Below, piece by piece: positions 1 through 57,834 of a stretch of DNA of 64,000 bases. Each line of letters begins with the position of its first letter. Position 1 is the stretch's first letter. Under the pieces are notes generated by a model. The model was not told the origin of the DNA. It saw only the letters and a list, made by a program, of their open reading frames with translations, and searched no databases. Origin of the DNA: Bremia lactucae (taxonomy: Eukaryota > Oomycota > Peronosporomycetes > Peronosporales > Peronosporaceae); NCBI RefSeq assembly GCF_004359215.1, contig NW_027152029.1:1369242-1433241 (forward strand), written 5' to 3'. The position numbers and the translations under genes are program-made.

Positions 1-6
1 AATAGC

Positions 7-990
7 TTGTCTGGAGAGACTACTCCTCACAATAAATATCCCTTATTTATTGCGACAAAGCTACATGGCCTTGATCCCAGCGCGAAGAACTTTCGCGCTG
101 AGGAAGATTTTTATCTCGATGTTTTTTCAAGCATCGATGGTATAGTGGCAACAATAAGCGAGATAAAGTCTCGCTTATGCAAGCTTGGAGTGCGTTCATT
201 CGCAATGTCCAAGACTTTGGACGCGAAGCTTGGCTTCAAAGACTTAACGCGATTCGCGTTAAGTTTGAGAAACGAACTCCAACTGGTGCAAAGAATATAT
301 TGCATCGGTTGTCACGTGAGGCTGGGCTTTCATGCCTCACGTGGGGTGATCCCTGTGCGTGTTGTGTTGACAACACGAAGAGAGTAAAAGGGGATGTCTA
401 TTCCCTTTCTTAGCCCTGAGGGAGGGCTCGCATCTCTATTGAGATGCGGGATTTGATTGGCGTTTTGCAATCGATTTTCAAGCGCCAGGGTCGCGTGTTT
501 TCCGATGGACCTTCTGAACTATCGGATGGGTCTCGTCATACTGATGGAAGAGGCCCTCAACGTCAACAATCAGCTGGGAACGAGGCTCCCAGCTGTCATG
601 TGAAGGTGGATAACCGCGCCAGCAAACAAGATAACTCGTTCGCTGCCCCTTCACATCACGGTGGTTCTGGATATGTTCCACAAGGAAACATTGACCACCG
701 TAATAATCCACCAATGGTTGTGGTGGAGGAGGAAAAAGTAGATCCGAACCGTGTGTCGGATCTAGAGTCGAAGATTGACAAAATCGATCACTTCCTACAT
801 AATTTGGAGGAGGGACTTGGCCACGAGCGCGGCAAGCGTCTTTCGTTGGAGCAGACGGTGCAGGCTCACCATATCGAGCGGTTGGAACACCGTTCGAAGA
901 GTGCGTACTCCTTGTTGGAGTACGAGCGGAACTATCATGCTGTTCGCGATGAGCTGTCGTCAGCTCATCGCAGTTTCGAGGAAACTCGGA
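7..990 (+). pseudogene. antisense ORF (aORF) of LTR1 element, copy A
   Basis: Plus-strand coding, opposite to pol. Readable in three pieces (7-170, 177-413, 444-990) joined by small frameshifts. Features in order: a conserved block beginning SGETTPHNK, a helical block (AWSAFIRNV, GREAWLQRL), the Cys motif CLTWGDPCACC at about 330-364, then an acidic/coiled-coil tail (VSDLESKIDKIDHFLHNLEE, later heptad-like L/E/R-rich sequence). The part from 481 on overlaps the chromodomain codons of the opposite strand. No known family is recognised. The same protein is seen in copies at 8060-8997, 12207-13530, 23297-24619 and 33960-34560, and more distantly at 31204-31620, 37302-38528 and 56870-57680. Confidence 0.6.
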
Positions 991-1167
991 ACCTGGTTTA
1001 CATTCTACGGAGAAATTATACTCCGCGAAGGAGGATAGCCACCTCGCCATTCTATGCGAGAGGTGTGGGTTATTTACGGCCGTGCGCAATGTCGCATGGT
1101 CCGTATATACGATGAGCGGTCTATCTCCGAGGAGATAGACCCTTAATTTAGCCAGTGCATATTTCAT
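478..1167 (-). pseudogene. RNase H tail fused to chromodomain (pol C-terminus, integrase deleted)
   Basis: Open frame of 229 aa. Residues 1-58 are the end of the Ty3 RNase H (MKYALAKLRVYLLGDRP, YTDHATLRT, HRMARWLSSFAEYNFSVE). The last ~75 residues are a chromodomain (FLVEHIQNHRDVKG, LVCWRGYPPSHDSWEP). The whole integrase that normally separates these is absent, so this is an internal deletion that happened to keep a frame. Chromodomains at the pol C-terminus define the chromovirus clade and target integration to modified chromatin. This copy keeps the Trp of HDSWEP, unlike those at 23381 and 37692. Confidence 0.75.
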
Positions 1168-7237: not shown

Positions 7238-8027
7238 ATGCTCTCTGCTTGGCCGCATCAGCCGAGGCCCATTCGGATGGACCCGCCCAAGTTCGATGAA
7301 ACTGCAGTGCACACGATTGTCCACTGGCTTTTAGCCGTGGAGCAAAGCGGTGTCGCGCAGCTCATCGAGGACGACAGCAGGATCGTGTCGTACGCCATGT
7401 CGCACCTGCGGGGTAAGGCGTCAGAGTGTGCTTACTCGGCGCTTATTGCGGACAGAAAGGCGCCACATGGGCGATCTTCAAGGAAAAGATTCGTGCCATG
7501 TACCAGCCGCCGAACAACGAAGTGTTGCTTCAGGCGCGCTTCTTTGGGGCGCGACAGGCGAAGCGGTCTCTGCAAGCGTATGTGCAAGAGATGCGCTCGC
7601 TGTCGGCGTTCATTACCGTAGGTCCGATTCCGGAGCACATAAGGTGCCCACGTTTATGAATGGACTACGGCATGGCGCATCGCGACAGGCCCTTTTTAGA
7701 AAGGTGCCGTCGACGATGGAAGAGGCAATCCAAATTGCCTTAGTTGAGGAGCAATTCTACAGCAGTGCCTCGGCGACAGCTTGGTATAAGCCGTCGGCCG
7801 TGAGGTCAGATGCCACTCCCATGAAGTTGGGCAATGCAGACGTTGTCTGCTATAAATGCGGAAAGCGCGGCCATATTATGGCTCGCTGCTATGCCAGGGT
7901 CCCTGCTGGGGCGAAGACGCCCGGCAAGAGGACTCCCTTCCCAAAGGGCGATGGCAAGAACCAGCGTGCGAGACGCATGAGTTCTGCATCGACCACTGAG
8001 GGGTCGGGAAATGCAGGAGCGCAGTAG
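7238..8027 (+). pseudogene. gag of LTR2 element B, with zinc knuckle, frameshifted
   Basis: The capsid region is read in two frames (7238-7440, DPPKFDETAVHTIVHWLLAVE; then 7426-7650, KEKIRAMYQPPNNEVLLQA). The C-terminal part is in a third (7640-8027: FMNGLRHGASRQALFRKVP, VEEQFYSSASATAWYKPS). It ends with the CCHC zinc knuckle CYKCGKRGHIMARC and a Lys/Arg-rich tail. Gag packages the RNA; the knuckle is the nucleocapsid part. Protease and RT are absent because an inverted LTR1 fragment begins about 30 bp after the stop. Confidence 0.8.
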
Positions 8028-8059
8028 GGTCGTCCCTACGGCGTGATTTTTCCGCTACT

Positions 8060-8997
8060 CCAAGTTGGAGTGCGCACTCTTCGCATGGTCTCTGAGCTCT
8101 CGATATTTTGGACCTCACCGTCTGGTCCAACGAGCGACGCTAGCCACGCTCGCGGTCAAGTCCCTCCTCCAAATCATGAAGAAGCGATCGATTTTGTCGA
8201 CCTTCGACTCTAGATCCGACACACGGTTCGAATCTAATTTTTCCTCCTCCACCACAACTATTGATGGATTCCCACGGTGGTCAACGTTTCCTTGTGGAAT
8301 GTATCCAAAACCACCGTGATGTGAAGGGGAAGCGAACAAGATCTTGTTCGCTGGCGCGGTTATCCGCCTTCACATGACAGCTGGGAGCCTCGTTCCCAGA
8401 TGATTGTTGACGTTGAGGGCCTCGTCCGTCAGTATGACGAGACCCATCCGATGGTTCAGAAGGTCCATCGGGAAACACGCGCCCCTGGCCCCTGTAAATC
8501 GATTGTAAAACGTCAATCGCATCGCGCATCTCGATAGCGATGCGAGCCCTTCCCCAGGGCGAAGATAGGAAATAGACATCCCCTTTTACTCGCTTCGTGT
8601 TGTTAAAACAATACGTACAGGGACCACCCCACGTGAGGCATGGAAGCTCACGTGACAACCGATGCAGCTTATACCTTGCACCAGTTGGAGTTCGTTTCTC
8701 AAACTTAACGCGATTCGCGTTAAGTTTTTGAAGCCAGGCTTCACGACCAATGTCTTTGACATTGCTAATGAACGCTTTAGGCTTGCATAAGCGAGACTTT
8801 ATTTCGTTATTGTTGCCACTATACCGTCGATGCTTAAGAAGAGGATCGAGATAAAATCTTCCATAGCGCGAAAGTCTTCGCGCTGGGATCAATGCCATGT
8901 AGCTTTGTCGCAACAAATAACTGGATGAACTTGGACTAGCTACTTCGTCATGTTTCAATGTGACGTTTGTCAACGAAATTTGAAGGGATAATTCCAC
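8060..8997 (-). pseudogene. inverted LTR1 fragment with aORF copy and dead chromodomain
   Basis: The minus strand carries the antisense ORF, open from 8997 to 8281 (SFEKRTPTG-like block as KFEKRTPTGARYKLHRLSRE, Cys motif CLTWGGPCTYC at about 8605-8645, DGPSEPSDGSRHTDGRGP). It continues in a shifted frame 8339-8115 (VSDLESKVDKIDRF). The plus strand over 8285-8490 is the chromodomain (RFLVECIQNHRDVKG then a frameshift). The fragment ends abruptly at both sides, inside gag-downstream DNA of element B on the left. Confidence 0.65.
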
Positions 8998-9713
8998 ATT
9001 AAGAACAAGCGAGATTATTTTAGACGGATCTTTTTACGATGCTGATATTTTAAAGTCTTTCGTAGCTGAAACAATGAAACCTCGCTTGTTCGATAGATGC
9101 CGCAGCAAGAAAAGTAATGGATGGCATTCGCTCGTTTATAATTTGTAAGACTACAGAACCAATAACCCTAACGTTTTCACAGCAAGAGTGCGCTAAAAAT
9201 GCAGCTAGCAGGAAGGCAGCTTTGTAGATTACTCTAAAAAATCCACGGTAATGATTTACTTGCAGGCGGGTGCAGCTGCCGTTGCGTACGACGATGGGCA
9301 AGAAAACTTTTGAATCGGATGCAGCATCTTGAAGACGAGGTGGTGATGTTGCGCCAGAAAGGACTAAGTGGAGGTGAAGATACTTGTACAAATGCTGCTT
9401 TGACTAGCTCCCAAACATGGCGCATAGATGCTAATAATCTGAATACAAAAGAAGAAGTATGGTCAAATGGCACCTTCCAGTATCAGTGAGTAAAGACGCT
9501 CTATTTACGGGCAGAAGAAGTTTGACCTATTATTCTCAGATAAGCTCTACGGATACTTACAAATCGCTCACAAGCTGCAGCAGTAAGGCAATAACGCTCC
9601 AGCAATCAGATATGGAATCTGTGGGTAGCTTGGGCAAGAGCTGCTCAAAAGTTGATGACAGAAGGGATAAACTGTTCCCGCACGACAGCAATATGCAAAC
9701 GTTGGATGGTGAT
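8998..9713. other. stretch without a recognisable gene
   Basis: Separates the inverted LTR1 fragment from a reversed LTR2. A plus-strand frame around 9280-9490 reads like a short coiled coil (ARKLLNRMQHLEDEVVMLRQ), and another frame is open 9459-9743. Neither matches a family I know. It could be the remains of a host exon or of another element. Confidence 0.3.
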
Positions 9714-11275: not shown

Positions 11276-11542
11276 TTAGCGAAGCGGCCTCAGCTGGTGC
11301 TTCTTTTCATAAGCAGCCACCAAGCCGGGCACATCAATACGTAGGGTATCGATCGGTTCCCATGAGTCAAAACGCTTCGGGTAACCTCTCCATTGGACGA
11401 TAAACTGATACCTTTGCCTAACGGAGCGGTGGGCACGCAACCTTCCAACAAGGAAGCGTTGATTCCCACCCGCATCCATCAGTGCAGGCAGTGCCCGATA
11501 GTACTGGCGATCTTGCTCACCTAATCGCGGCTGTCTTACCAT
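11276..11542 (-). pseudogene. chromodomain end of LTR2 element C pol
   Basis: Open frame of 88 aa ending pol: NQRFLVGRLRAHRSVRQRY, FIVQWRGYPKRFDSWEPID, VPGLVAAYE. The aromatic cage and WEP motif of chromodomains are visible. The rest of pol (integrase, RT) is absent; an LTR1 element begins at 11683. 11543-11682 holds nothing recognisable. Confidence 0.75.
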
Positions 11543-11682: not shown

Positions 11683-12121
11683 TGTAACGGGGCACTGCCG
11701 ACTCGTACTGCTTCAGTACAAGTCCACTTCGCACTGCCTCAGAGCGAGTGGTGCCTCAAGTCACTTCACGTTCACTTGTACGTGCAGAGGAAGTCTTCTC
11801 TTTAAAAGACTTGCCTTAAAAAGATTTAATTAAAAACTGTATTAATATAATTAAGTTCTTCTTGTCCATCTACTTAATACTAACTAAATTATAAACTAAT
11901 AAAAACATGTACTAAAAGTCTTATTTGTCTTTCTTTTTGCGCGTGTCCAGCGCTGACTGGACCGCGGAGATAGTAGATATAATGCTCTATATCTACCAAT
12001 GGATAAGCTTTTAGAATATTACCATTTAGAGTAATATCCTCCATATATTATCTACCTTTTAGATAATATATTAATCAAAACCTTTAAGTGTTACTATCAT
12101 GTAACGATACACTCCGTTAAA
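11683..12121 (-). repeat. LTR1, 3' LTR of element D
   Basis: 439 bp, TGTAACGGGG at the left and a mutated end (CCGTTAAA for CCGTTACA) at the right. The polypurine tract (ATGGGAGGAGTGA on the minus strand, 12122-12134) lies just inside. Confidence 0.85.
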
Positions 12122-12206: not shown

Positions 12207-13530
12207 TTGGTCAGATTCATCATTTTAAATTCTATCGCATGGTTAACAAGTCCATGCGGTATGCGAATAATGCGGCGCCTTCGGCTGCGGTTCATGCAGC
12301 CGCGGGCGACGCATTATTGTCTCTTGCGGCAGGACGTTCCGTCTGCCGTAGTGTCATATTCTCCCGCAACTCTAAATGTTGCGGGTGCACGTTACGATAG
12401 ACCACGTGAATGCGACCCCTCTTTAGAGGTCGACTACGAATGCGAGTCGGACGAAATGGCCGACTCGGGGAGAACAGAACAGTCGCCTGGTCACTTCTAG
12501 AACGCCTTTTTGATCGATTTTATTTGCTATTTTAAGTTTAATTATTACAATTTCGCTATCGTCAGGCGGCTGACTATGAGCCTTCGAATGAGGGGGCTTA
12601 TCCGAGTAGACGTGCTGGTAGCATTCGCTACAGCATGTTCGGTTCCGACGATGAGGATGATTCCTCATCGCCACCACCGTCTCCCGTGCCGTCACCCGCA
12701 CATATTTCTGTGCGTGGTGATGCTGATGGCGTAAGCCATCGTAATAAAAGTTCTTGTGGTACCTCTACTTCAGTGGGTACCACTCAGGGGATCGTAGACG
12801 GTAAAATGTCTCGTCTTGCTCCTGCAAAGAAGCCGTGGCTTCTGCCCGAACAGCTAATTGATAGCTTGTCTGGAGAGACAACTTCTCACAATATAAAAAT
12901 TATTTATTTATTGCGACAAACCTACATGGCCTTGATCCCAGCACGAAGAACTTTCGCGCTGAAGAAGATTTTTATCTCGATGGTTTTCTTAAGCATCGAC
13001 GGTATAGTGGCAACAATAACGAGATAAAGTCTCGCTTATGGAAGCCTAAAGCGCGTTCATTCGCAATGTCAAAGACATTGGTCGTGAAGCCTGGCTTCAA
13101 AGACTTTACGCGATTCGCGTTAAGTTTGAGAAACGAACTCTAACTGGTGCAAGGTATAAGCTGCATCGGTTGTCACGTGAGGCAGGACTTCCATGCCTCA
13201 CGTGGGGTGATCCCTGTCCGTATTGTTTTAACAACACGAAGCGAGTAAAAGGGGATGTCTATTTCCTATCTTCGCCCTGGGGAAGAGCTCGCATCTCTAT
13301 CGAGATGCGCGATGCGATTGACGTTTTACAATCGATTTACAGGCGCCAGGGGCGCGTGTTTTCCGATGGACCTTCTGAACCATCGGATGGGTCTCGTCAT
13401 ACTGACGGACGACGTCAGCTCATCGCAGTTTCGAGGATCTTCGGACCCGATACGAGAATCTCCAGATTCAGCATCAGAATCTGGTTCGTGAACACAATAA
13501 TCTTTTAAAAGATTCTTGAAAAGGGTGGTC
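12207..13530 (+). pseudogene. antisense ORF (aORF) of element D
   Basis: Longest aORF copy with its N-terminus: MVNKSMRYANNAAPSAAVHA then SLEVDYECESDEMADSGR (acidic, Ser-rich). A 68-bp AT-rich insertion at about 12490-12557 breaks it. Then FGSDDEDDSSSPPPSPVPS, GVSHRNKSS, KKPWLLPEQLIDSLSGET, the helical block, the Cys motif CLTWGDPCPYCF at 13190-13230, RVKGDVYFLSSPWGRARI, and, beyond a deletion at about 13409, a coiled-coil end (RSFEDLRTRYENLQIQ, LVREHNNLLKDS) with a stop near 13518. The deletion that removed the chromodomain from pol removed the matching middle of this frame. Function unknown. Confidence 0.6.
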
Positions 13531-13817
13531 AGATCCGTCCTCGGATGAAACCGCGTACTGATGGTACGGGCGGAGCCGACCAACGTAAAACGTAGGATGC
13601 GAACGCATCCTACGTGGCAATTTATTGTGTACGCATTGCCTGTGCGATGCAGTACACGGAACGGCCCAATGAACTTGGGTTGTAGTTTACTGCTATCAAC
13701 ATTAGTCATTACACGCTTAGGTAAGCTTACCGTAGACAGAAGTACTAGGTCATTAACTTTAAATGAAAGAATGTTTGCTCTTCCATGTTTGTCTGCGTTC
13801 CGTTTCTGACGGTCCAC
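13326..13817 (-). pseudogene. integrase C-terminus of element D, chromodomain deleted
   Basis: Frame of 163 aa. DRQKRNADKHGRANILSFKV, NDLVLLSTVSLPKRVMTNVD, PKFIGPFRVLHRTGNAYTIN is the GPF/Y module of the Ty3 integrase C-terminal domain. The tail jumps from DPRNCDELTSS to VSMTRPIRWF; the ~150 residues with the chromodomain present in element A are missing. Confidence 0.75.
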
Positions 13818-13990
13818 TGCGTTAGCAATGGAATCCTAAACGAAACAGATTACTGATTCTCGAGTCAGCAGAAATTCCTCTCCTGACTCAGTTGTTTTTT
13901 TCTTTTCTAGTGCGCTTTGCGCGTACTGCCATGAGATCATTCTCGTCTTGAATGAAGATTTCTTCGGCATCGACATCACTCGCGTCGTTG

Positions 13991-14600
13991 TTAACTTCGA
14001 CGCGTGATGAGCATGAGCCAGAAATGGTTTAGCTCGTGCGAGTCCACCCCCCCTCTTAATTTAGAGGATCCCTCTAATTGGGTGGGTATACGAGGATGGC
14101 GTAAGTTATTCACGAAGAACGGTGTATGAGTTGTAGACGCATGCACCAAATTATTGGTGGCGAATTCGACCCATCGGTAAAAACTCGCTATAATTCGGTA
14201 CGATTGGACGTAACCTCGAAGTATCTCTTCGAGGACGCGATTTACAAAATTCGTCTGACCATCTGTCTCTGGATGATCAGAAGTTGACATAGTCAGCCGT
14301 GTTTCGAGAGATCGGAACACAGATTGCCAAAACTCCGTCGTAAACCGTGGATCTCTATCCGAGACCAGGTCACGGGGTAACCCGTGGAGTTTGAATACCG
14401 TGTCGATATAGACAAGGGCACAGCCCGGAGCCGTGATCGACTCTGGTACTGCAGCAAGATGTACCATCTTGCTGAATCTGTCTACAAAAACAAGGATTTC
14501 ATTGTATTTGTGATCGTCTTTGGGAAATTCGAAGACGGAGTCCATAGATACGGACTGCCAACACTCTGCCGGAAGTGGTAGAGGTTGAAGAGATGCACGG
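13991..14600 (-). pseudogene. integrase catalytic core of element D
   Basis: Open frame 14545-13991. All three acidic positions of the DD35E core are visible: ILVFVDRFSKMVHLA, GLPRDLVSDRDPRFT and the Glu in NFVNRVLEEILRGYV. MSTSDHPETDGQTN is the usual gypsy signature. It is upstream of the C-terminal domain by a frameshift near 13985. Confidence 0.85.
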
Positions 14601-14602
14601 GA

Positions 14603-14821
14603 TTAAGGGCTAGGCTTCACCCGTTGACATACCTCGCAAGCACGAATGTACTTGCACACGAACTGATACTGGCGGGGCCAGTAAAAGTCGCGACTTACTG
14701 GGAGGTAAGTCTTCTCACGTCCACGATGCCCACTTGTTGGTGCATCGTGACACTCATACACTGATGCGCAAGCGCAAATCATTGTGAGTAGGGACGACGA
14801 AACGTGGGGTGTCGCCGGCAA
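14603..14821 (-). pseudogene. integrase zinc-binding domain of element D
   Basis: H-H-C-C domain: YECHDAPTSGHRGREKTY with the two His, FYWPRQYQFVCKYI, and RACEVCQRVKPS with the two Cys. Frame is separate from the core (stop at about 14602). Confidence 0.85.
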
Positions 14822-14971
14822 CGGCTGTGTAATACAATAAGCCGTTGCGTGTTGTGTATCGATCGGATGACGATCGATATAAAGCCAGTAAATCTTTATA
14901 AGATTTATCTGATGGATTCATCAGATGATCTATTAAACGCAGAAGGTCCTTATTTTCTGCTTAGGCTTTCT

Positions 14972-15481
14972 TTATGTCATCAAATAAGGTTGATGACGGA
15001 ACACTTGAAATGAGTGTTGCAACGATGAAATTATTTTCACCGTTAGAATGCGCAGCCGGCTCGAAATCGGGTCGGCGTGATAACGCATCAGCGACGACAT
15101 TAAGTCGTCCTGGTTTATATTCCACGGAGAAATTATACTTCGCGAAAAAGGATAGCCATCCTGCATTCTTTGCGAGAGGTGTGGGCTATATTGGGCCGTG
15201 TGTAATGACGCATGGTCCGTATTTACGATAAACGGTCTATCTCCACGGAGATAGACCGTAAACTTAGCCAGTGCATATTTCATGGCAAGGAGTTCCTTGT
15301 CATGCACTGGGTAATTGGGTTCAGCTGGTTGCAGCTGACGCGATTGGTAACAGACGACGCGCTCCGCGCCGTCTGTATCGTATTGCATTAACGCACAGCC
15401 GATTGCGAAATCGCTGGCGTCACAGACCACATGGAATGGTCTGTCTTGATCTGCAATCGCCAATATGGGCGATTGCATCAA
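14972..15481 (-). pseudogene. RNase H of element D
   Basis: PILAIADQDRPFHVVCDASD opens the Ty3 RNase H with the first catalytic Asp. ELLAMKYALAKFTVYLRGDR and NTDHASLHTAQYSPHLSQRM follow. It is frameshifted in the last third (after SQRM), compared with the intact copy at 35363-36655. Confidence 0.8.
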
Positions 15482-15489
15482 GCTTTGCT

Positions 15490-16330
15490 TGATACCTTCA
15501 GAGGAACGCTGACAATCAGCGTTCCGTAGCCACTTATCGTCTTTTTTCCAAAAGACGAGAGAGATGAACTGTCATCTCGGCATAATTGCGGGAATACTTG
15601 TGCAAGTACGCCGCTAATCATAGGAATTTTCTAAGTCCCTTGACATCGACTAAAACTGGTCAGTCGGTAATTGCCTTGATCTTTTCGGGATCAGGGCGCA
15701 CGCCGCGTTTACCGACGATGCACCTAAGAAGGGGTATTTCGCTTGCAGCGAATATACACTTCTTGAGATTTGCATACAACTTATGCTTTCGCATAAGTGT
15801 AAGAACCTGACGAACGTGAGTTTTATGAACTTCCACGTCCGTCTTACCGTCCATGGCCCGGCTATGGACGAATACATCGTCAAAATAACTCGGTGCGAAT
15901 TCTCGCACCGGTCTCAACAGATTCGTTTCGCATCTGTTGAATGTTGCAGGGGCGTTACTAAGTCCCTGAGGTATCACTAGCCATTCCCAGGGCATCCCAC
16001 TGGGAGCGCTCACTGCTGTGTACGGGATGTCCCGTTCACGCATAAGGATTTGATAAAACCCATCCATTAGATCCATGGACGAAAAAGATCGAATTCTTAG
16101 ACATACCATCTATGATTACGTCTTTTCTAGGTATCGGCATTTGAGCCGGTACCGTTGCAGCATTCAGCTTATTGAATACGTGCACTATCCGCCACCCTCC
16201 TGTGGCCTTTCGCACGCAGAAGGTCGGAGAGCCATGCGGGGAGGTTGACTTCCTCACGTGGCCCGCTTTTAATCGATCGATAAAGATTTTATCGATCGCA
16301 AGTACTTGTTCATGAGGCAGTGGCTACTGC
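15490..16330 (-). pseudogene. reverse transcriptase of element D
   Basis: 16257-16036 reads SPTFCVRKATGGWRIVHVFN, KLNAATVPAQMPIPRKDVII. 16109-15660 reads FSSMDLMDGFYQILM, PSGMPWEWLVIPQGLSNAPA and the catalytic loop SYFDDVFVHSR (YFDD at about 15878-15889), then LKKCIFAASEIPLLRCIVG. A frameshift near 16080 and one after 15660 make it inactive. Confidence 0.85.
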
Positions 16331-17623: not shown

Positions 17624-18760
17624 TCACCAGGTGCAGAGACACATAATGATTGTATGTCTGGAGCAACTTAAGTCAAGAGATTTGCAAATTCTGTTGAGGT
17701 TGGTAGATAAGTAGGGCGTTGCGCCCCTACTGACCCCGACCGCTTTTTGGCGGCCCGCCGTGCTGTTGCGATTTCGCAACAACGTCCGACCCGCGACGAT
17801 TGCCCTTTTTGGCATTCAGTCCATAGTTACGTTTACTACCTCTCGGTACTGGGCGTGGGGCACTACACTTATGAGCGTGGTGACCTGACTTATGACAGCA
17901 ATTGCATTTCCGCAATTGCTTATTGTCTGAATAGCGAGGTCTCTCGCTTTCGACATGAGAGAGGTCCATAGGTTCTGGACCCCCAAGCTCGTGTCGTCTT
18001 GGAGGACAATACGAGGACGAACGTGCTTGAGCCTGTCTCAAGTTAAAGTCCTCCTCGAGTTCCGCAACGGATATTGCTTCTTCAAGCGTATCCAGTTCCA
18101 AGCGGAACAGATGGACCTTGACGAGACCATCCGTAAGACCTTGCATGAACACCGTAATCAACGTGTGTTCATGAACTGGGTTGTTCGTGACACAACTCGC
18201 TAAGCGTCGTATGTGCTGGGCATAAGCGTGAACATCACGCTTGCCTTGCTTGAGTTTTAGAAGCTCTGATCGAGCTTCTGAACTCAGTCCTAGGCGGATC
18301 AAACATCTGTTTGAGCGGGGATTTAAAAGTCTCTAGCGAGCCAAATACATATGGGTCGCGCAACGTAAGGCCTAAAACCCAAGTTTTGGCACGACCTGTC
18401 GAATTTGATTGAGCAAATGCGACTTGCATTTGCTCGACGATGCGACGAGCCCTTATGGCATCGTCCAACTCGACAAACCATCTTAAGAGGAATCTTCTTC
18501 GACTCTTCTATACTTAGGGATGTCAATATTTAAGGTTATCGGACGACGCGTGTGCGTCTTTCAGGCACAGGGGTCTGCACCTGCTGTAACCTCAACAGTT
18601 CTGCCTGTTGAGAGCCTTGCTGATTAAGCAAGGCTACCTTCTCCTTCGCCTCGTCAAGTTCATGTTGTATGAACTTGGCGATGGCTGAATGGAGGGCATC
18701 TCTATCCAAATCGGACAGCATGGCCAAGATGGCATCGTTCCCTACGGTCGAACTCATTCG
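17624..18760 (-). pseudogene. gag of element D
   Basis: Three frames. 18757-18536 is the N-terminus (MSSTVGNDAILAMLSDLDRD, a helical KFIQHELDEAKEKVALLNQQ). 18468-18235 is mid capsid (KTWVLGLTLRDPYVFGSLET). 18302-17727 is the C-terminal part (KLKQGKRDVHAYAQHIRRLA, FMQGLTDGLVKVHLFRLELD, LEEAISVAELEEDFNLRQAQ). The CCHC knuckle CNCCHKSGHHAHKC comes near 17900. MSSTVGN is the likely gag start. Confidence 0.8.
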
Positions 18761-18897: not shown

Positions 18898-18899
18898 GG

Positions 18900-19332
18900 T
18901 GTAACGGGGCACTACTGACTTGTACTGCTCCAGTAAAAGTCCATACGCACTGCCTCAGTGCGAGTGGTGCCTCACGTCACTTCACGTACACTAGTACGTG
19001 CAAAGGAAGACTCTCTTTAAAACATTTACCTTAAAGAGGGTTAAAAGTAAACTGTATTATATATAATAAGTTTTTCTGTTTTTTTAATGCTAACTTTATT
19101 TTAAACTAACACAAAACATTTAATAAAGTCTTATCTGTTTCTCTCTTTGCGCGCGTCCAGCGCTGACTGGACCGCGGAGAAAGTAGATATAATGGTTTAT
19201 ATCTACCAATGGATAAGCTTTTAGAATATTACCATGTAAAGTAATATTTTCCAAATATTATTTACCTTTCAGATAATATATTAATTAACAACCTTTAAGT
19301 ATTAATTTCATGTAACGATAGACCCCGTTACA
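18900..19332 (-). repeat. LTR1, 5' LTR of element D
   Basis: 433 bp from TGTAACGGGG to GACCCCGTTACA. It differs from the 3' LTR of the same element at many positions, so the insertion is not recent. Confidence 0.9.
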
Positions 19333-23330: not shown

Positions 23331-24619
23331 CTAAATTTCCTCCTCCACCACAACCATTGGTGAATTACCACGGTGGTTAACGATTCCTTGTGGAACGTAT
23401 TCTAAATCATTGTGATGTGAAGAGGCAGCGAAGAAATTATCTTGTGCGCTGGCGCGGTTATCCACCTTCACATGACAGCTAGGAGCCTCGTTCCCAGCTG
23501 GTTGTTGAAGTTGAGGGCCTCGTCCATCGGTATGACGAGACCCATCCGATGGATCAGAAGGTCTATCGGAAGCACGCGCCCTTGCGCTTGTAAATTGATT
23601 GCAAAACGTCAACCGCATCGCGCATCTTGACAGAGATGCAGCCCTTCCCCAGGGGGAAGAAAGGGAGTAAACATCCCCTTACACTCGTTTCGTGTTTTCG
23701 ACACACCACGGACAGGAATCACCCCCGGTGAGGCATGGAAGTACTACCTCACGAAACAACCGATGCAATTTAGACCTTGCTCCATTTGGAGTTCGTTTCT
23801 CAAACTTAATGCGAATCGCGTTAAGTCTTTGAAGCCAGGCTTCGCGGTCCAATGTGTTTGACATTGCGAATAAAAGCGCTCCAGGCTTGCATCAGCGAGA
23901 TATTATCTCGCTTGTTGTTGCCACTATACCATCGATGCTTCAGAAAACCATCGAGATAAAAATCTTTCTTAGCGCGAAAGCTCTTCGCACTGGGATCAAG
24001 GCCATGTAGGTTTGTCGCAATTAATAAATGATTTTTATTGTAAGGAGTAGTCTCTCCAGACAAGCTATTAACTAGCTTGTTCGGAAGAAACGTCGGCTTC
24101 TCCGCAGAGGCAAGACGAGACATTTTACTGTCTACGCTCCCCTGAGTGGAACGCACTGAAGCAGGGGTACCACAAGAACTTTTATTACGATGGCTTACGC
24201 CATCGTCATCACCACGCACAGAAATAGGTGCGGTTGACGGCACGCGAGACGGTGCTGATGATGAGGAATAATCCTCATCGACGGAACCAAACATGCTATA
24301 GCGAATGCTATTAGCACGTCTACCGATTGAGCCCCCTCATTCGAAGGCTCATAATCAGCCGCCTGACGATGATCTGGCGACTCTTCTGTTCTCCCCGAGT
24401 CGGCCATTTCGTCCGACTCGCATTCGTAGTCGACCTCCAAAGAGGGGTCGCATTCACGTGGTGAATCACCACGTGCACCCGCAAATCTAGTGTTTCGGGA
24501 GATGATACTAATGCGTTGAAACGTCTGCCGCAAGAGACAATAATGCGTCGTCTGCGGCTGCATAAACCGCAGCAGAAAGGCGCCGCACTATTCGCATACC
24601 TCATGGACTTGTTAGCCAT
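23331..24619 (-). pseudogene. antisense ORF (aORF) of element F
   Basis: From MANKSMRYANSAAP at 24619 through an early frameshift, SDEMADSGRTEESPDHRQAA, FGSVDEDYSSSSAPSRVPS and SGETTPYNKNHLLIATNLHG, to LDPSAKSFRAKKDFYLDGFL (24294-23821 open). Then REAWLQRLNAIRIKFEKRTP, the Cys motif CLTGGDSCPWC at about 23695-23745 (Trp replaced by Gly), and DPSDGSRHTDGRGPQLQQPA (23618-23331). Together with element D it shows the whole N-terminal two-thirds of the protein. Confidence 0.6.
23381..23593 (+). pseudogene. chromodomain of element F with one in-frame stop
   Basis: RFLVERILNHCDVKRQRRNY, LVRWRGYPPSHDS, stop, EPRSQLVVEVEGLVHRYDET, ending at TAA 23591. The Trp codon of the SWEP motif is TAG at 23480-23482. 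The same change in the antisense reading is silent (Pro CCC to CCT). Confidence 0.8.
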
Positions 24620-30724: not shown

Positions 30725-31203
30725 TGTAACGGGGCACCTTTAGCTAGAAATAATATTAGTGCTTGCCAACCTACACCGATAACAGTGAAGGTCATGTGCC
30801 TCGAATATTTCAGGTACACTGACGTGCAGCGCGAAATAACAAGTTAAGAAGTCTTGGATACTAGAGGTCGATATTAAGGCGTTAGCATAGAGAAAAGTAA
30901 TTTGTAATAATATATTATGTTCTCACGTAACGATATTATATCTACCGACTTTGATCTATTAATAATTGTCTATGCATAGCGCCAATTGCGCACCGCCAAA
31001 TCATGTCTTGTAACAATGGGCGTTGTCGATTTAAACTTAAACCAACCAATCAGCAGAACTAATGTCTTGTTGCCACAAGATAACAATTTTGGTGATATTG
31101 GAACTATTTAGTCAAAATTAGCAAAGGATAATAATTTGTACTTCTTTATATAAATCCTATTATAGGGTTTACGATTTAGAACTTAAGGCGAAACCCCGTT
31201 CCC
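30725..31203 (-). repeat. LTR3, 3' LTR of element I
   Basis: 479 bp. Left edge is TGTAACGGGGCACCTTT, right edge CGAAACCCCGTTCCC (expected CCCCGTTACA). Internal blocks match 22880-23262 and 39112-39593. Confidence 0.65.
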
Positions 31204-31620
31204 CCAGGCCGCGAGGGCTGGCTTGACAAACTCCTTACTTAACGTGACCTGTTTGAGAGAGGGTCCGAAGTACAAGATGCATCGTTTAACCAGCGAGGCA
31301 GGCTTGCCTTGCCACACGTAGGGGTGCTTATGTCCCTGCTAATTTAAGGGTGCAGTACATGTCCCAAAGAAGGCCTACTCTCAAAGGACCTCATTAGAGG
31401 ACTCGCATATCTTCATAGATGCGCGAAGAGATTGATGGATCTTCTGTTAAAGAGGATGAGTCTCATTATACTGCAGAAAACGACCCGGATCGTCCGTCAT
31501 TAGTTGAAGTCGAGGCCCCAACTATCATGCGTGGCTGGATGCTCTTGCCATCGAACGAGATAACTTTTTCAGATTCTTCCGCCTCGCGATGGTGTAAGAA
31601 GCATTCGACTTGAAAAAGCT
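31204..31620 (+). pseudogene. antisense ORF (aORF) of element I, decayed
   Basis: Plus strand KYKMHRLTSEAGLPCHT, stop, GCLCPC at 31267-31346 is the aORF Cys block with the Trp codon turned into TAG. KGAVHVPKKAYSQ follows, as in the copies at 38050 and 57530. The downstream part overlaps the chromodomain on the other strand. Confidence 0.5.
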
Positions 31621-33989: not shown

Positions 33990-34560
33990 CTCATGCGGTG
34001 GTTGATAGTGCTGCGCCTTCGGCTGCGGTTCGTGCAGCCACGGGTGACGCACTTTTATCTCTTGCGGCAGACGGAACGCCTGCCGTAGCATCTCCCACTC
34101 GCACAACACTAGATGTTGCGAGTGCACGTGGTGATTCACCACGTGAATACGACCCCTCTTTGGAGGTCGACTACGAATGCGAGTCGGACGAAATGGCCGA
34201 CTCGGGGAGAATAGAACAGTCGCCTGATAGACGTCAGGCGGCTGACTATGAGCCTTCGAATGAGAGGGCTCATTCTGATTGACGGGTTAATAGTCAATTT
34301 GGATCCGACGATAAGGATGATCCCTCATCGTTCGTTCCGTCTCCCGTACGATCACCTGCACGTGTTTCTGTGCAAGGTGATGACGATGGCGTAAGCCATC
34401 GTAAGAAAAATTCTAGTGGTACCCCTGCTTCAGTGGGCACCACTCAGGGGAGTGAAGACAGTAAAATGTCTCATCTCGCCTCTGAAAAGAAGCCGTGGCT
34501 TTTGCCAGAACGGCTAATCAATAGCTTGTCTGGAGAAACTACGCCTCACAATAAATACCA
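33990..34560 (+). pseudogene. antisense ORF (aORF) of element J, N-terminal half
   Basis: Open 33998-34282 (VDSAAPSAAVRAATGDALL, SLEVDYECESDEMADSGRIE, RRQAADYEPSNERAHSD) and, after a short break, 34370-34560 (GDDDGVSHRKKNSSGTPASV, KKPWLLPERLINSLSGETTP). The acidic DYECESDEMADSG segment is the same as in copies D and F, so the N-terminus is well supported. Confidence 0.6.
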
Positions 34561-34652
34561 TTTGTCCACGTTTCTTGAGATACGCTTTGCGAGTTTGGAC
34601 CCTGGCCTTCGCCTTCCATTCTGCTTCTTCACTTGTATCTTCAACTATTATT

Positions 34653-35063
34653 TGTAACGGGCTAAAGTTTGCCCTACTGTTACACAGTCCCCGTGAAGTA
34701 CACTTGGTGTACTTAACGGGATGGTTAATTACTTAAATAAAGTAATTAGACCCACTACTCGGGTGTGGTTCACATTTGTGACCAAACCTTGTGTATGTGA
34801 CGCACATAGGTACATTCACATTAGGAGGGATGACGCCTAGCGTCATCCGTTTCGTGAGATATCTAGAAAGATATGCTTGCAATATATATTAGTGTTATCT
34901 ACAGAGATGGCATTTTTGATTGGTAAAAGTAAGTATGCATATTTAATGCGAATAAATATAAATCAGTGAAAAAAACTACTTTGTAAGTGCGCACGAGGAG
35001 CCGGATTACCGCTCCCGTGACGATACTTTACTCGTGTATCTAGTGTGTTGGGTGAGGTCGCTA
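34653..35063 (+). repeat. LTR2, truncated at its 3' end
   Basis: Starts TGTAACGGGCTAAAG. It follows the LTR2 copy at 60898 up to GTGAGGTCGCTAA at 35063 and then breaks into gag-tail DNA. Confidence 0.75.
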
Positions 35064-36740: not shown

Positions 36741-37860
36741 AGGACTCGCTCGAGCAAAAAAAAAGTTTAGCTCTTGCTCATCACGCATTAGCACTAAGGT
36801 CAATGCGAAAGATACTAATGTTGATTTAATTTACATTGAGGTGGACAAACTCAGTAATAACAATAATGTTATTACTGACTTTAATAACGATGCTGAAAGA
36901 CTTAACATCAAAAAGAAAATTATTAATGAGAACGATAATACTCTTAATAACGAATAGATTTAAATACCGCAGTGCGAGCCGGTCGCACTGAAAACAAAAA
37001 AAGAGATAGCAGGTAATTTTTTTTGGCTTGAGAAGCATGGGTCCGTCTTGTACAGGAGTCCATCGCTGATGCGGTGGACCAACAGAAACGGAAGACAACA
37101 TACCATCAATTAATTCTAATAACCCAGTCGTACTGTCTACGGTTGACCTTCTGAAACATGTCGTGATGAAGGCAGTGATAAATTACTGCCCAGGTATATT
37201 GGGCCGTTTTGTGTTCTACATCGCTGCCTCGTGGTATGCGTGCGCGCATCCTACGTTTTATGTTGGGTATCTATGGGTACGAGGCTTCTTCCAATTCCGG
37301 GTTACACCGGAACGGTCGAGGGCATCGCCAAAGCCTGATGGTTTCGAGCCAAAGCCTTGTTGTCTCGGAACATAGTCTGATTCTCTTGAACCAGACGATC
37401 CACTCTTTCCTTCAAGGAAGAGATCTTCTGACGAGCTGTCACCAGCTCGTTTTGAAGGGACTGACATGTCCTCTTGTTCGCCATTTGTTCAGTCGCAACC
37501 TGCGCACAATTTTTCATATGGTCACGAAACACATTGTCGACAGTCACCGCTAACTCGCTGCGATGGGCTCGCTCGTGATCAAGATCCTCCTTTAGATAAT
37601 AAGAGGAGTGGTCCAATCACGATGTTGATTCGGGCTCGTCAAATGAGTCGATCCCGATTCCCCCCCCTCCACATCCGTTGACAAATTCGAGTGATGAGAA
37701 GCATTTTCATGTTGAAAGCTTCTTGAACCGCCGTGAGGTAAAGGGGGTTCGAACGAGTCATCTCGTTCGTTGGCGAGGGTATCCACCCTCGCATGATAGT
37801 TAGGAACCTCGTTCCCAACTGATGTTGGACGGGTCTCGTCTTGCAGTACGATGAGAACAT
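36741..37860 (+). pseudogene. integrase C-terminus and chromodomain of element H
   Basis: VLSTVDLLKHVVMKAVINYC and GRFVFYIAASWYACAHPTFY (GPF-like module) at about 37125-37270. Chromodomain KHFHVESFLNRREVKGVRTS, HLVRWRGYPPSHDS, stop, EPRSQL at 37692-37820. The SWEP Trp codon is TAG (37801-37803), as in element F. A frameshift separates the modules. Confidence 0.75.
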
Positions 37861-38528
37861 CCGCCTCGACAGAGAGTCCATCAAGAACGAACGTTTCCCG
37901 CGCTCGTAATAGTATTGAAGGTTCTCAATCCCTTGATGCATCTTGTTAGATGAGCGTCCTCAAATGAGAATCTTTAAGGGAATATTTCTTTGCTCTCTAC
38001 CTCAAGCTTTGGGGTACATGCTTCTTTAGAGGCATGACCTGCCCCTTTAAAACAGCATTGACATGAGTCCCCCCACGAAAGGCAAGGAATTCCTGCCTGT
38101 CTAGACAAACGTTGTAGCTTATAGTGTGCACCGACTACGGTCCGTTTCTCGAACCGTTCACGGAGAGCATTTAGCTTGTCAGGCCTATGTTTTGCATATT
38201 GAGCACAAAGGCTGTCCAAGCTTGGAGCAAAGGTTTGCATCCTTCCCCCGCATAGAAGAGTACTACCGATGCCGATAAAGAATTCCGTCTCATTCTCACC
38301 AGTGAAGCCTGGCTGAGTCAAATAACGGAATGTGATATCGATCGTTGTCATACCAGACCAACGAATTAGGTTATTCTTCGAGGGGAAACTATGTCTATTT
38401 TCAGGAGCGAGCCGCAACGTTTTGCGATTCCTCTCTTGATGGCGCATGTTAACGTTAACTTGGCCCTTGAAGCAATCCCTAGAATCACTCCTTTCCTGGC
38501 GTATGCAAACTAGCACCACCAGTAACAC
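37302..38528 (-). pseudogene. antisense ORF (aORF) of element H (diverged family)
   Basis: 38528-37974 is open for 184 aa. It has KLNALRERFEKRTVVGAHYK, LQRLSRQAGIPCLSWGDSCQ with the full Cys motif CLSWGDSCQCC at about 38050-38090, and FKGAGHASKEACTPKLEVES. 37941-37590 reads QGIENLQYYYERGKRSF and NERDDSFEPPLPHGG. 37616-37302 is an open coiled coil (YYLKEDLDHERAHRSELAVT, LQNELVTARQKISSLKERVD, RLVQENQTMFRDNKALARNH). This mirrors the LTR1 aORF layout (Cys motif, then coiled coil) at lower identity. Confidence 0.65.
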
Positions 38529-40527: not shown

Positions 40528-42250
40528 ATGGCCCTGACGGATGCAGCTCGCGAATTCGCTCATGCAGAAGGATATGCTGTGTCTACCCTAAATTCCGACA
40601 AAAAGAAGATTATTTTGTAATGCGATCGACGTGGTACCTACCTGCAAAGGGCAGCAACATGACTTGAGTTGCCGCGAAACTCTGCGAGCCGATTGACTAA
40701 TTGCCCGTTTCGTCTATCAGGGCGTCTACCAAGCGATAACAGCTTGCAACTGCGAACTTTTCATAGGGAACATAATCATGAACCTTCAGACAACATAAGT
40801 AGTCATCCGACTGCCTGACGCTTTCAATCAGAGCAAAATTTGTTAGTACAAAAACTTCTTAAGGCTGGGATTGCGCCGAAAGAAATTGTCACAACCCTAC
40901 GCCAAATAGATCCCAGCACAAAAGCAATAGGAAGGACAATCTACAACGAGCGCCAGCGGTGCGAGCAGAAGAGCTTCGCAATCGTACACCACTGGACGCT
41001 CTATTTGACATTCTGCATCATGCAGAGTGGGTTTATAGGTGTGAAAGATGATTATCATCATCTTTTCACACCTATTCTATGCCAGCCAAAAATCTGTGGA
41101 ACTCCTTTACAGACATCCATACGCTTTGGTGGCGGACTGCACCTAGATAGGTGCAGTCCACCACCAAAGCGTAAGGATATCTGTGATCGATTCATAATGC
41201 CGGATCCTCCATATCACTGGTGTCACAAGCTTCAACACTTCCTCCCAATTGCTATTGCTTTCATCAGGCATGAACGTGAAGCGGACTACCTTTGGGCTCT
41301 CGATCAACTGCCACAGACAATCACAACAGACCGAGAATTTGCCCTAAAGAATGCCCTGAAATAACATTTCCCACCTCAACCCATCTTCTATGCGTTTAAC
41401 ATATTTAAAAAAACGCTCTAGCAAATTGTCGTAAGTTTTTTGGACCTGGGGATGACTGGAATAAATTCGTGAAGAGTCGGACAGATGTAATCTATTCGAA
41501 ATCAGAGGAAGTGTAAATCAATCTCATGATAAGCATGCACTCAACATATACTGCACTGCCTAACATGCTGGCCTATCCGGATACCACCTGTCTGACACAT
41601 AAAAATTAATTTATTTACGCATACACCAGGAATTGCATGCATTTTGGCCACGTCACATCATCGAGAGCTGAAGGGCTTCATCATATGTTAAAGAGCTACA
41701 TAAGTGTTCCGGAAAAAACTTGGGTGATGTACAAACTCGCGTAGCTCATGCTGCTTAAGCCCAGATTGAAAATCTTGGTGTTTAGCTGTCGTAGGAGCGA
41801 ATGCAAGTCATGCACAAACACAGAAAATCCCTTTCTTTGCTGTAGTGCGCCGCATTTCAATATACGCACTAGGAAAATGCTTTGAGCTATGAGTTATCTG
41901 AAGATCCTACCAATGCCACCATAACCTGTTCAGTTGCGTGTAATTCAAGAATGGAATACCCTGTCAGCATCAAATAATCTGCTTTTCTAAGAAGTGGCCG
42001 CCCTCTCACTGTTAAGAGTTTCCACCATTAATGGCGCTTGGATGCAGCTGCGCCTGCAGCCATGCCTGAAGTGGGTAGACAAAATGTTGCCACCATATTA
42101 GAGGCTGTCAAAGAACGTTACAACATGGTGGAGTATCGCCATCAAGAAACCATTATGGGAACAGCTACGATAAATTGCAGTCTGGATGATATGGCTCCAA
42201 GAATTCTGTCCCTTAGCGTACTCGTGGTCGCTCAACTGGATCTAGACCGT
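40528..42250 (+). pseudogene. MULE transposase, frameshifted
   Basis: 40528-40640 and 40700-40830 read like a FAR1/FLYWCH-type DNA-binding N-terminus (REFAHAEGYAVSTLNSDKKK, FHREHNHEPSDN). 40840-41364 is open: LLKAGIAPKEIVTTLRQIDP, YLWALDQLPQTITTDREFAL with the second catalytic Asp. In a shifted frame at about 41087-41144, HPYALVADCT holds the first catalytic Asp. 41645-41710 reads HFGHVTSSRAEGLHHMLKSY, the usual MULE C-terminal signature. Stops and the hairpins at 41012-41184 break it. Confidence 0.7.
41012..41184. repeat. three successive hairpins inside the MULE transposase
   Basis: 41012-41026 is a 15-bp palindrome (TCTGCATCATGCAGA). 41035-41075 has arms ATAGGTGTGAAAGATGAT and a near-perfect reverse complement. 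41109-41184 has 36-bp arms (from ACAGACATCC to GACTGCACCT) with a 4-base loop and four mismatches. The last lies exactly on the codons of the first catalytic Asp. Confidence 0.85.
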
Positions 42251-49219: not shown

Positions 49220-50118
49220 GCGACTTACGAGTCCTGACCAATTTTAATGTCCCTCAAAAGTTTGTCCATGGTTGTGTGTAAACCTACGGATGTCTGTCAA
49301 AATGGAATTCAAATTAATTTATACTTTTGGCGATTGTATTCCTGTAAATTTGTATTTAAATTGCGAATTTTTCATTGTTCGTGAAAAACAAATTAATATA
49401 TAGATTGAAAGGTTTTCTTTAAAAAAAATAAAAACAACCGACTGATGTGATGTACACCAAGTGCGTCCGATCTCGTTCCGCAGTGGCAGAGACATCCTCG
49501 CCCCTTGGCAGACCTTGCAACTCTTCTTTGGCTCGTTGTTACGCCTCGTGGGGCGCGTTTAGTACGCAAGTGCCAATTCTTTGCAACGTATTGCAAGATT
49601 CAGTATCAAACCGCCGAATCTCTCGTGTTGCCACGAGTAGATTTAATACCGAGAACATCACGCTAGAAGACGCGCCATGGCGGACGCGCAGGATGTCCAG
49701 ACGCTCAAGATGCAAGGCACGTGACATCGTGTGGCCATTTAAAGCACACTCTCTTCCTTTGTGACAATATCGTGTGGTTTGTAGTGGTACGGAAACACGA
49801 GAATGACCCGGATCGTCGACGTTCGACTCATTTGCGATTAGAACCGCCACGTACGTGGCCATGTTGCAGTCCTTTTTCGTGCCATGATGCGACTTTAGAC
49901 ACTAATACGCGTTGTAACACGTAGAATCCGATGTCCGATTAGCGAGTTCTTTCCAACGGGCCCGCACATCAGGCGTTCATCGCCTTCTTCGCTCCAATAC
50001 TAGCAGTATCGGGAGCTATGTACCACCGACAAAGGAGAACGATAGTACTCCTACCGGCAATAATGCGTCTAGCAGCAACGCGATTGTTGAAAACGACAAG
50101 CTTTATGACTCGAAAGAA
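49220..50118. other. intergenic region before the PP2C gene
   Basis: A/T-rich 3' flank to about 49430. The frames at 49447-49764 (plus) and 49539-49862 (minus) overlap each other and show no domain. In-frame sequence without stop extends the PP2C frame back to about 49920, so the PP2C start could be earlier than 50119 only via an unusual codon or an upstream exon. Confidence 0.4.
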
Positions 50119-56869: not shown

Positions 56870-57680
56870 CTAAAGACTTATTGTCTCAGAACAGGGTCTA
56901 TTTCTTTTGAGCAAGACGATCCACTCTTTCCTACAAGAAAGAAAATCTTCTGACGAACAGTCAACAGCTTCTTTTCGTTCGCCAGTTTGTTCAGTCTCAA
57001 TCTGCGCACAACTTTTTACCTGGTCACGAGAAACATTGTCGACCGTCACCGCTAATGCGCGGCGACGAAATTGCTCGTGGTCAAGATTCCCTCTTAAGGA
57101 AAAAAGGGTGTGATTCGAATTACAATGCTGAATCGGGCTCGTCAAACGAGGCGAATCCGATTCCCCCCCCACATCCATTGATGGGTTCGGGTGGTGAGAA
57201 GCGCTTTCTTGTTAAAAGATTCTTGAGCCACCGTGAGGCAAAGAGGTTCGAGTGAGTTATCTCGTTCGTTGGCGAGGGTGTCCGCCCTCGCATGATAGTT
57301 GGGAACCTCGTTCCTAACTGATATTGGACGTTCCGGGTCTCGTCTTACATTACGACGAGACCCATCCTCCTTGGTAAAAGGTCCAACGGAGAACGAGTGC
57401 TTCCCGAGCAAAAAAGTATTGAAGGTTATCGATCCCTTGACGCATCTCGTAAGAGATGAGAGTCCTCCAATGGGGATCTTTGAGGAATATGCTTCCTTAG
57501 GGCATTTACCTGCACCCTTAAAACAGCATGGACATGAGTCTCCCCACGAGAGGCAAGAATCCGTGCCTCTCTAAACATAGGGTGCAACTTATAGGGTGCA
57601 CCGAGTACGGTCCGTTCTGGAACCGTTCACGGAAAGCATTTAGCTTGTCAAGCCAGACCTCACAGCCTATGTTATGTACA
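56870..57680 (-). pseudogene. antisense ORF (aORF) of element K
   Basis: Cys block CLSWGDSCPCCFKGAGKCPK at about 57565-57505, then KEAYSSKIP. 57411-57142 is open (DGSRRNVRRDPERPISVRNE, VPNYHARADTLANERDNSLE). 57178-56870 has the start of the coiled coil (FSLRGNLDHEQFRRRALAVT, QIETEQTGERKEAVD). It matches element H block by block and, more distantly, LTR1 copies (DGSRHTDGRGP, NEAPSCHVKVDNRASEQD). Confidence 0.6.
57120..57400 (+). pseudogene. chromodomain of element K, broken
   Basis: SGGEKRFLVKRFLSHREAKR then a stop (TGA at 57253) and a shifted frame reading LVRWRGCPPSHDSWEPRS-like sequence (SHDS, WEP Trp codon intact at about 57298). Confidence 0.6.
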
Positions 57681-57834
57681 TTCTATACAAAGGCTGTCCA
57701 AGCTCGGAACAAAGGTTTGACATCCTTTGTTCGTTTGCAAGTGTACCACCGATGCCGGTAAAAGGCATTGATGAAGAATTCTGTTTCAACCTCACCAGGC
57801 TTGTGAAGCCATGATGAGTCGAATATCGGAATAT

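What the first reader, a model, noticed from the sequence alone, without database searches (positions are those of the whole stretch)
12207..13530. Conserved antisense gene (aORF) in oomycete chromoviruses, between chromodomain and 3' LTR
Seen: eight copies (7-990, 8060-8997, 12207-13530, 23331-24619, 31204-31620, 33990-34560, 37302-38528, 56870-57680) carry the same protein on the strand opposite pol. Its order is an acidic Ser-rich N-terminus (DYECESDEMADSG), a block with KPWLLPE and SGETTPHNK, a helical block with REAWLQRLNA and KFEKRTP, the Cys motif C-L-[ST]-W-G-D-x-C-x-x-C, then a coiled coil. Frameshifts differ between copies while the frame between them stays the same, which suggests one intact ancestral ORF of several hundred codons. 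Known: HTLV-1 codes the bZIP protein HBZ antisense from its 3' LTR, and some plant Tat-lineage elements carry antisense ORFs. Inference: an accessory gene transcribed inward from the 3' LTR, perhaps regulating the element or its host chromatin. I know of no description in oomycetes.
Basis: partly seen in the sequence, partly recalled or inferred. Interest (0 to 1): 0.88.

Follow-up and report, generated by a model that had tools for sequence, protein, structure and literature searches.

The report
Hidden backwards gene in mildew retrotransposons
Jumping genes that fill a downy-mildew genome carry, on the strand opposite their known genes, an extra protein gene of about 560 codons that natural selection has kept intact, so these elements seem to make a previously unrecognised accessory protein.

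Summary
All eight window stretches match one protein family on one strand; seven of eight carry a chromodomain on the other strand. The window copies are decayed, but intact proteins exist: a 559-aa one of this genome's type (P0153), and two clusters of 529-aa Peronospora matthiolae proteins standing for 1335 and 524 member sequences. The gene starts about 142 nt inside the 3' LTR edge. Its first ~325 codons lie outside pol; the rest overlaps the end of pol antisense.

Outside pol, changes shared by 3 or more of 61 copies show 0.37 of the neutral nonsynonymous/synonymous ratio. Changes private to one copy show 1.06. The elements' integrase core gives 0.25 and 1.07 by the same method. Inside the overlap the constraints interlock: the aORF coiled coil is conserved (0.45) where pol is free (1.50), and pol's chromodomain is conserved (0.52) where the aORF is free (1.80).

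So it is a real protein-coding antisense accessory gene, analogous to plant Grande/Retand antisense ORFs and HTLV-1 HBZ, with no sequence match to them in the tests made. A role as nuclear, coiled-coil, possibly zinc-binding regulator is inference. Transcription was not tested.

The parts
12254..13595 (+). antisense ORF (aORF), decayed copy: ATG at 12254, stop TAG at 13593-13595; frame changes, codons ~365-499 deleted at 13412
   Evidence: translations, tblastn with P0153, start and stop letters
11683..12111 (-). 3' LTR of the element that carries the 12 kb aORF (TGTA..TACA edges)
   Evidence: direct repeat with 18898-19330, 85% identical; edges
18898..19330 (-). 5' LTR of the same element (BLAST limits, edges not read)
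12220..12226 (+). INR-like motif TCATTTT, 34 nt before the aORF ATG
   Evidence: same place in 21 of 23 genomic copies; motif definition YCAYTYY from PMC3599244 (passages)
13342..13413 (-). chromodomain remnant at the pol C-terminus, opposite the aORF
   Evidence: tblastn
13555..13766 (-). integrase C-terminal SH3-like domain, overlapping the aORF end
   Evidence: tblastn; Pfam SH3_Tf2-1 on 13326-13835
13991..14602 (-). integrase core
   Evidence: Pfam rve, E=3.9e-7, slightly below the curated cut-off; tblastn
14972..15571 (-). RNase H domain of pol
   Evidence: Pfam RT_RNaseH_2 and RT_RNaseH
15660..16109 (-). reverse transcriptase (part)
   Evidence: Pfam RVT_1
17727..18332 (-). gag (part)
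   Evidence: Pfam Retrotrans_gag
1..992 (+). aORF copy (chromodomain opposite at 481-636)
8025..8856 (-). aORF copy; 8281-9033 is one open stretch of 250 codons (chromodomain opposite at 8343-8489)
23340..24482 (-). aORF copy (chromodomain opposite at 23435-23584)
31189..31570 (+). diverged aORF copy, 33-50% identical (chromodomain opposite at 31420-31565)
34043..34654 (+). aORF copy, residues 18-219 only, no chromodomain match
37350..38230 (-). diverged aORF copy, 26-70% identical by piece (chromodomain opposite at 37756-37887)
57035..57829 (-). diverged aORF copy, 28% identical (chromodomain opposite at 57255-57401)

Best explanation
Shown: a family of chromodomain-bearing Ty3/gypsy LTR retrotransposons in a downy mildew carries a second gene on the strand opposite gag-pol. 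It begins about 142 nt inside the 3' LTR edge and ends opposite the integrase C-terminal coding region. It encodes a protein of about 530-560 residues that selection has preserved while the elements multiplied.

Anatomy: an acidic, Ser-rich N-terminal half, predicted disordered; a Trp-bearing core modelled as helices with low confidence; an H-x9-C-x6-C-x2-C cluster; a ~90-residue coiled coil; a basic RKKxRTDG tail. No strongly hydrophobic stretch was seen.

Inferred: the protein is made from an mRNA started just inside the 3' LTR. It enters the nucleus through its basic clusters, forms oligomers through the coiled coil, and binds DNA or chromatin through the core, which may bind zinc. There it tunes the element's own transcription or integration, an antisense accessory regulator like plant gene23-type proteins or HBZ in role, not in descent.

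My odds: protein-coding gene 0.95; nuclear oligomeric regulator 0.5; promoter just inside the LTR 0.5.
For: Selection: outside pol, shared changes N:S 96:107 against 139.8:57.7 expected (ratio 0.37), private changes 470:153 against 466.7:160.3 (1.06), 61 copies, Fisher p=3.8e-13; the ratio falls from 0.37 to 0.25 as 'shared' is raised from 3 to 12 copies; the core (codons 240-320) gives 0.19-0.21; integrase yardstick 0.25 and 1.07, 33 copies. Four of the five other frames give 1.30-1.54 for shared changes; the fifth, antisense, gives 0.52 but holds 15-32 stops in six open copies. Interlocking constraint in the overlap. ATG in 23 of 23, stop in 14 of 18. Intact homologues in another species. 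Chromodomain on the opposite strand only in 55 of 57 distinct places (67 of 70 loci before removing double fetches). Coiled coil modelled with block pLDDT 83-96 for residues 431-510. H-C-C-C invariant in 12 aligned cores. Basic clusters, low hydropathy.
Against: No transcript or protein evidence. The core fold is unresolved: mean pLDDT 45.5 and 44.3; no Pfam match by this family above its cut-off and no convincing PDB match. Zinc binding and nuclear entry rest on motifs alone; the third Cys is lost in some members, e.g. P0024. The copies are relatives, so shared changes are not independent and the p-value is optimistic. If changes seen in only 2 copies count as shared, the ratio is 0.60. Selection is uneven: codons 120-160 (1.72) and the stretch opposite the chromodomain (1.80) look free. 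That the gene is antisense to pol in Peronospora was not checked (no DNA).
Confidence: 0.65

Rival explanations
1. Shadow of pol: the open frame is only the mirror image of constraint on the pol strand.
For: The last ~235 codons do overlap pol, and one antisense frame also shows a lowered ratio, 0.52 outside pol and 0.49-0.53 in three of four stretches.
Against: The first ~325 codons lie beyond the usual pol stop (opposite codon 326 in 29 of 45 cases) and have the signal; the pol frame continued there gives 1.64; inside the overlap the aORF coiled coil gives 0.45 where pol gives 1.50. The mirrored frame holds 15-32 stops in six open copies.
Confidence: 0.02
2. The antisense RNA matters, not the protein: transcription from the 3' end makes dsRNA with pol RNA and feeds silencing, a host or element control.
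For: Small RNAs in both directions cover Gypsy elements in Phytophthora infestans (PMC3522703, passages); a dsRNA role is discussed for plant antisense ORFs (PMC7264820 section 8).
Against: Selection acts on codons, not only on sequence: shared nonsynonymous and stop changes are depleted (2 stops against 7.5 expected) while synonymous ones are in excess. Both roles may hold together.
Confidence: 0.1
3. Accessory structural or replication factor: the protein works in the cytoplasmic particle (second Gag-like protein, chaperone or assembly factor) rather than as a nuclear regulator.
For: The Cys-His cluster and coiled coil would also suit nucleic-acid packaging; selection nearly as strong as on integrase fits a core part of the cycle.
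Against: An ordinary Gag is present on the pol strand (Pfam Retrotrans_gag; CCHC seen by eye). Acidic disordered N-terminus and basic clusters resemble nuclear factors more (judgement).
Confidence: 0.2
4. A captured host gene or a nested foreign element inserted antisense.
For: Gene capture by retroelements is known (PMC11963269 and PMC7264820, passages).
Against: Fixed geometry in 55 of 57 distinct places; diverged copies in the same window share it; the named hits among those listed come only from two downy mildews and none bears a convincing host-gene name.
Confidence: 0.03

Closest known systems
[quoted passage not shown] Retand-lineage TRP28 (PF04195) ORFs
   Same: Same place and strand: antisense, between pol and 3' LTR; the Grande protein is nuclear and its antisense region is transcribed (PMC7264820 passages and sections 7-8; PMC11963269 passages).
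   Different: Retand is a non-chromovirus lineage (PMC11963269). PF04195 is not among the Pfam matches of 22 members scanned. The last ~40% of the oomycete gene is overprinted on pol's chromodomain and integrase tail.
HTLV-1 HBZ
   Same: Antisense accessory gene with a promoter in the 3' LTR, nuclear (PMC7264820 and PMC11963269, passages); dimer-forming zipper recalled.
   Different: No bZIP family among matches here; exogenous retrovirus of people against an oomycete retrotransposon; promoter of the oomycete gene unknown.
Oomycete Chronos elements (Ustyantsev et al. 2017, PMC5348765)
   Same: Oomycete Ty3/gypsy with a chromodomain at the integrase end.
   Different: Chronos carries an extra plant/archaeal-type RNase H, not found in the ORFs scanned here; the word 'antisense' does not occur in that paper's main text.

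Membership tests
Chromodomain-bearing Ty3/gypsy retrotransposon | two LTRs with gag, RT, RNase H, integrase and C-terminal chromodomain in this order | tested here: met
   LTRs 11683-12111 and 18898-19330; gag, RT, RNase H, IN, SH3; chromodomain remnant and Pfam Chromo in the 1 kb copy. Protease not identified.
Chromovirus clade in the strict sense | RT phylogeny within the chromovirus branch | not tested
   no tree built
Chronos (oomycete) | plant/archaeal-type RNase H in addition to the Ty3/gypsy RNase H | tested here: inconclusive
   only RT_RNaseH families matched in the pol-strand ORFs scanned; the gap 14603-14971 between integrase and RNase H ORFs holds stops and was not scanned
antisense aORF between pol and 3' LTR (aORF-3R) | position and strand, in most copies | tested here: met
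   chromodomain opposite only in 55 of 57 distinct places; LTR edge 140-145 nt before the ATG in 20 of 23 copies. Places were found through the aORF, so elements without it are not counted.
Retand TRP28 (PF04195) protein | Transposase_28 domain | tested here: not met
   not among Pfam matches of 22 members at E up to 10; HMMER filters lose most matches above about 0.1, so remote kinship is not excluded
HBZ-like bZIP | basic leucine zipper domain | tested here: not met
   no bZIP family among matches; weak coiled-coil families such as CENP-Q, best E=0.0009, in 2 of 22, and HALZ, E=0.63, in 1 of 22
Env-like aORF | transmembrane segment, sense strand | tested here: not met
   antisense; highest 19-residue Kyte-Doolittle mean 1.36 (P0153) and 0.31 (P0058)
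zinc-binding domain | bound metal | not testable with these tools
   H-x9-C-x6-C-x2-C in both intact proteins; H and three C invariant in 12 cores; some members of wider sets lack one of them

The most novel reading that the evidence does not exclude
A third, independent invention of an antisense accessory gene at the 3' end of an LTR retroelement, after retroviruses and plant elements: a new protein family in downy-mildew retrotransposons, partly overprinted on pol so that the constrained domains of the two genes interlock (chromodomain opposite the aORF linker, coiled coil opposite pol's spacer), acting in the nucleus to control the element whose kind has filled the genome.
Probability: 0.45. 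Interest if true: 0.8.

Novelty: new variant of a known kind. Interest (0 to 1): 0.68.

Why it matters
Gypsy elements dominate some downy-mildew genomes (58.6% of contig sequence in Bremia lactucae, PMC6570648, passage). A selected antisense gene in them is a candidate lever for that expansion and suggests that antisense accessory genes evolved again outside plants and retroviruses. It adds a large protein family without a Pfam name, offers a clear case of opposite-strand overprinting with partitioned constraint, and warns annotators: four proteins labelled 'RxLR effector candidate' in Hyaloperonospora match this family.

Tried and rejected
Minus-strand reading of 12207-13530 gave no conserved protein; the gene is on the + strand. 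Pfam, PDB sequence search and AlphaFold gave no fold for the core, so no fold search was run: a low-confidence model gives meaningless matches. A viral-contig scan found no relative. Pol-shadow and nested-insert readings were rejected. The 40-codon blocks beyond codon 440 are unsafe, because the reference copy has a local off-frame stretch; one search replaces them. The same flaw touches the 'B overlap' rows. Upstream extension of the reading frame (MLIG.. start): 6 of 23 copies have a stop within the 15 codons before the ATG, so the MRG start is preferred. Phytophthora: no named hit (57 listed; 120 of 641 listed) or 56 (115 listed, length limited to 64-203 aa); this is not proof of absence.

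Full report
What was claimed.

Check of the observation. The piece at 8281-9033 (-) is one open stretch of 250 codons. Searched against the whole genome G000 (115.9 Mb, 220 contigs), it has 150 matched places, a lower bound: 6435 first-look candidates, 150 scored. In a database of 5.8 billion proteins it finds 57 relatives, among them many uncharacterised proteins of Peronospora matthiolae at 36-57% identity and one of Hyaloperonospora arabidopsidis. A profile search then found 641 proteins, of which 120 were listed; the top two clusters are 529-aa P. matthiolae proteins standing for 1335 and 524 member sequences. The same list holds P0153, 559 aa, standing for 19 members; it is 99% identical over 352 residues to copy L058 of this genome. 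With P0153 as query all eight window places are hit, and seven of eight have a chromodomain on the other strand. The window copies themselves are broken; the target copy has an ATG at 12254, several frame changes and a deletion at 13412.

The element. At 11683-12111 and 18898-19330 lie two LTRs, 85% identical; the first has TGTA and TACA edges. Between them, on the minus strand, are gag, RT, RNase H, integrase, SH3-like tail and a chromodomain remnant. The aORF starts 142 nt from the inner edge of the 3' LTR here; in 20 of 23 genomic copies the distance is 140-145 nt. Of 57 distinct places, 55 have a chromodomain only on the strand opposite the aORF; L066 has none (partly unread letters), and in L002 the chromodomain is opposite a second aORF in the same stretch. 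Because places were found through the aORF, this says nothing of elements without it.

Gene structure. In 23 of 23 copies with a recognisable N-terminus the start is ATG; in 14 of 18 copies with a recognisable C-terminus a stop follows RKT or its variants directly (both sets were picked by a motif pattern). The pol stop lies opposite codon 326 in 29 of 45 cases, the rest spreading from 285 to 381 (double fetches not removed). So codons 1-325 are free of pol in the usual form and about 235 codons overlap it.

Selection. Copies were compared at each codon; a change seen once is most likely post-insertion decay, a change seen in three or more copies most likely arose in the multiplying lineage. 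In codons 1-322, with 61 distinct copies kept from 75 (near-duplicates and those under 100 codons dropped), shared changes are N:S 96:107 against an expected 139.8:57.7 from the same mutation spectrum, ratio 0.37; private changes are 470:153 against 466.7:160.3, ratio 1.06. Shared stops are 2 against 7.5 expected; private stops 32 against 27.9. The contrast has Fisher p=3.8e-13, which overstates certainty because the copies are related. Raising the bar for 'shared' to 5, 8 or 12 copies gives 0.33, 0.32, 0.25; lowering it to 2 gives 0.60. The integrase core of the same elements, by the same method on 33 copies, gives 0.25 and 1.07. Thus the antisense gene is held nearly as tightly as integrase. 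The signal is uneven: 0.19-0.21 in the core and 0.25-0.57 in the other blocks, but 1.72 at codons 120-160; private changes per block scatter from 0.77 to 2.01 on small counts.

Controls. Two other sense frames and two antisense frames give 1.30-1.54 for shared changes. The remaining antisense frame gives 0.52; it is closed by 15-32 stops in six open copies, and I take it as a mirror of the aORF's third positions (inference).

Interlocked overlap. With an open C-terminal copy as register (60 copies), the coiled coil and tail give 0.45 for the aORF (46 N: 44 S) and 1.50 for pol (72:19); the aORF linker opposite the chromodomain gives 1.80 for the aORF (37:9) and 0.52 for pol (25:21); the stretch opposite the pol tail gives 0.65 (15:10) and 1.23 (20:8). 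No test was run on these counts. Each gene tends to be constrained where the other is free.

Protein. The N-terminal half is acidic and Ser-rich and predicted disordered; residues 424-514 of the Peronospora protein form one long helix, confident for most of its length, read as a coiled coil; the core is modelled as helices with low confidence. H-x9-C-x6-C-x2-C is present in both intact proteins; its four residues are invariant in twelve aligned cores, while some members of wider sets lack one. No Pfam family reached a convincing score and no PDB sequence fits; weak coiled-coil matches such as CENP-Q (best E 0.0009 in 2 of 22) are what such helices give. The highest hydropathy mean is 1.36.

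Expression. Untested. An INR-like motif (definition from PMC3599244, passages read) sits 34 nt before the ATG in 21 of 23 copies against 1.7% in base shuffles; since the copies are related, this is one observation, not 21. An FPR match within 100 nt was seen in 1 of 23.

Species. This is inference; the tool names no organism.

Known relatives. [quoted passage not shown] PMC11963269, passages), with nuclear location in Grande and a TRP28 domain in Retand. HBZ is the retroviral counterpart. Pfam scans here show neither TRP28 nor bZIP. The main text of the paper on oomycete chromodomain elements (PMC5348765, abstract, outline and passages) does not use the word antisense; nor does that of the spinach downy mildew pangenome paper (PMC11540230, passages). 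The rows listed by my ten accepted paper searches show no account of such a gene in oomycetes; they are a part of the matching papers, and the library holds open-access papers only.

Verdict. A real, selected, protein-coding antisense accessory gene; a new variant of a known kind. The nuclear-regulator role is my best guess at even odds.

Noticed in passing
proteins P0056, P0251, P0259, P0266 (Hyaloperonospora arabidopsidis): Four proteins that a source calls 'RxLR effector candidate' match this retrotransposon family; they may be misannotated element fragments.
   Followed up: partly
proteins P0035 and P0203 (Peronospora matthiolae): Family members named 'Transposase' and 'Protein yippee-like' by a source, probably automatic labels.
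   Followed up: no
window 11291-11407 (-): A different chromodomain, 49% identical, with no aORF match on the other strand: perhaps a chromodomain element family without the antisense gene.
   Followed up: no
window 40819-41364 (+) and 43865-44317 (+): A weak MULE transposase match (below its cut-off) and a Tc5-type transposase DNA-binding domain.
   Followed up: no
window 47105-49219 (+): Open frame of 704 codons with no Pfam match and, by eye, one hydrophobic stretch: probably a host membrane protein.
   Followed up: no
window 49918-51723 (+) and 62286-63068 (+): Host genes: PP2C phosphatase with FHA domain, and triosephosphate isomerase.
   Followed up: no
aligned copies, codons 120-160 of the aORF: Shared changes exceed the neutral ratio there (1.72, 24 N: 6 S): free drift or diversifying change, not resolved.
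   Followed up: no
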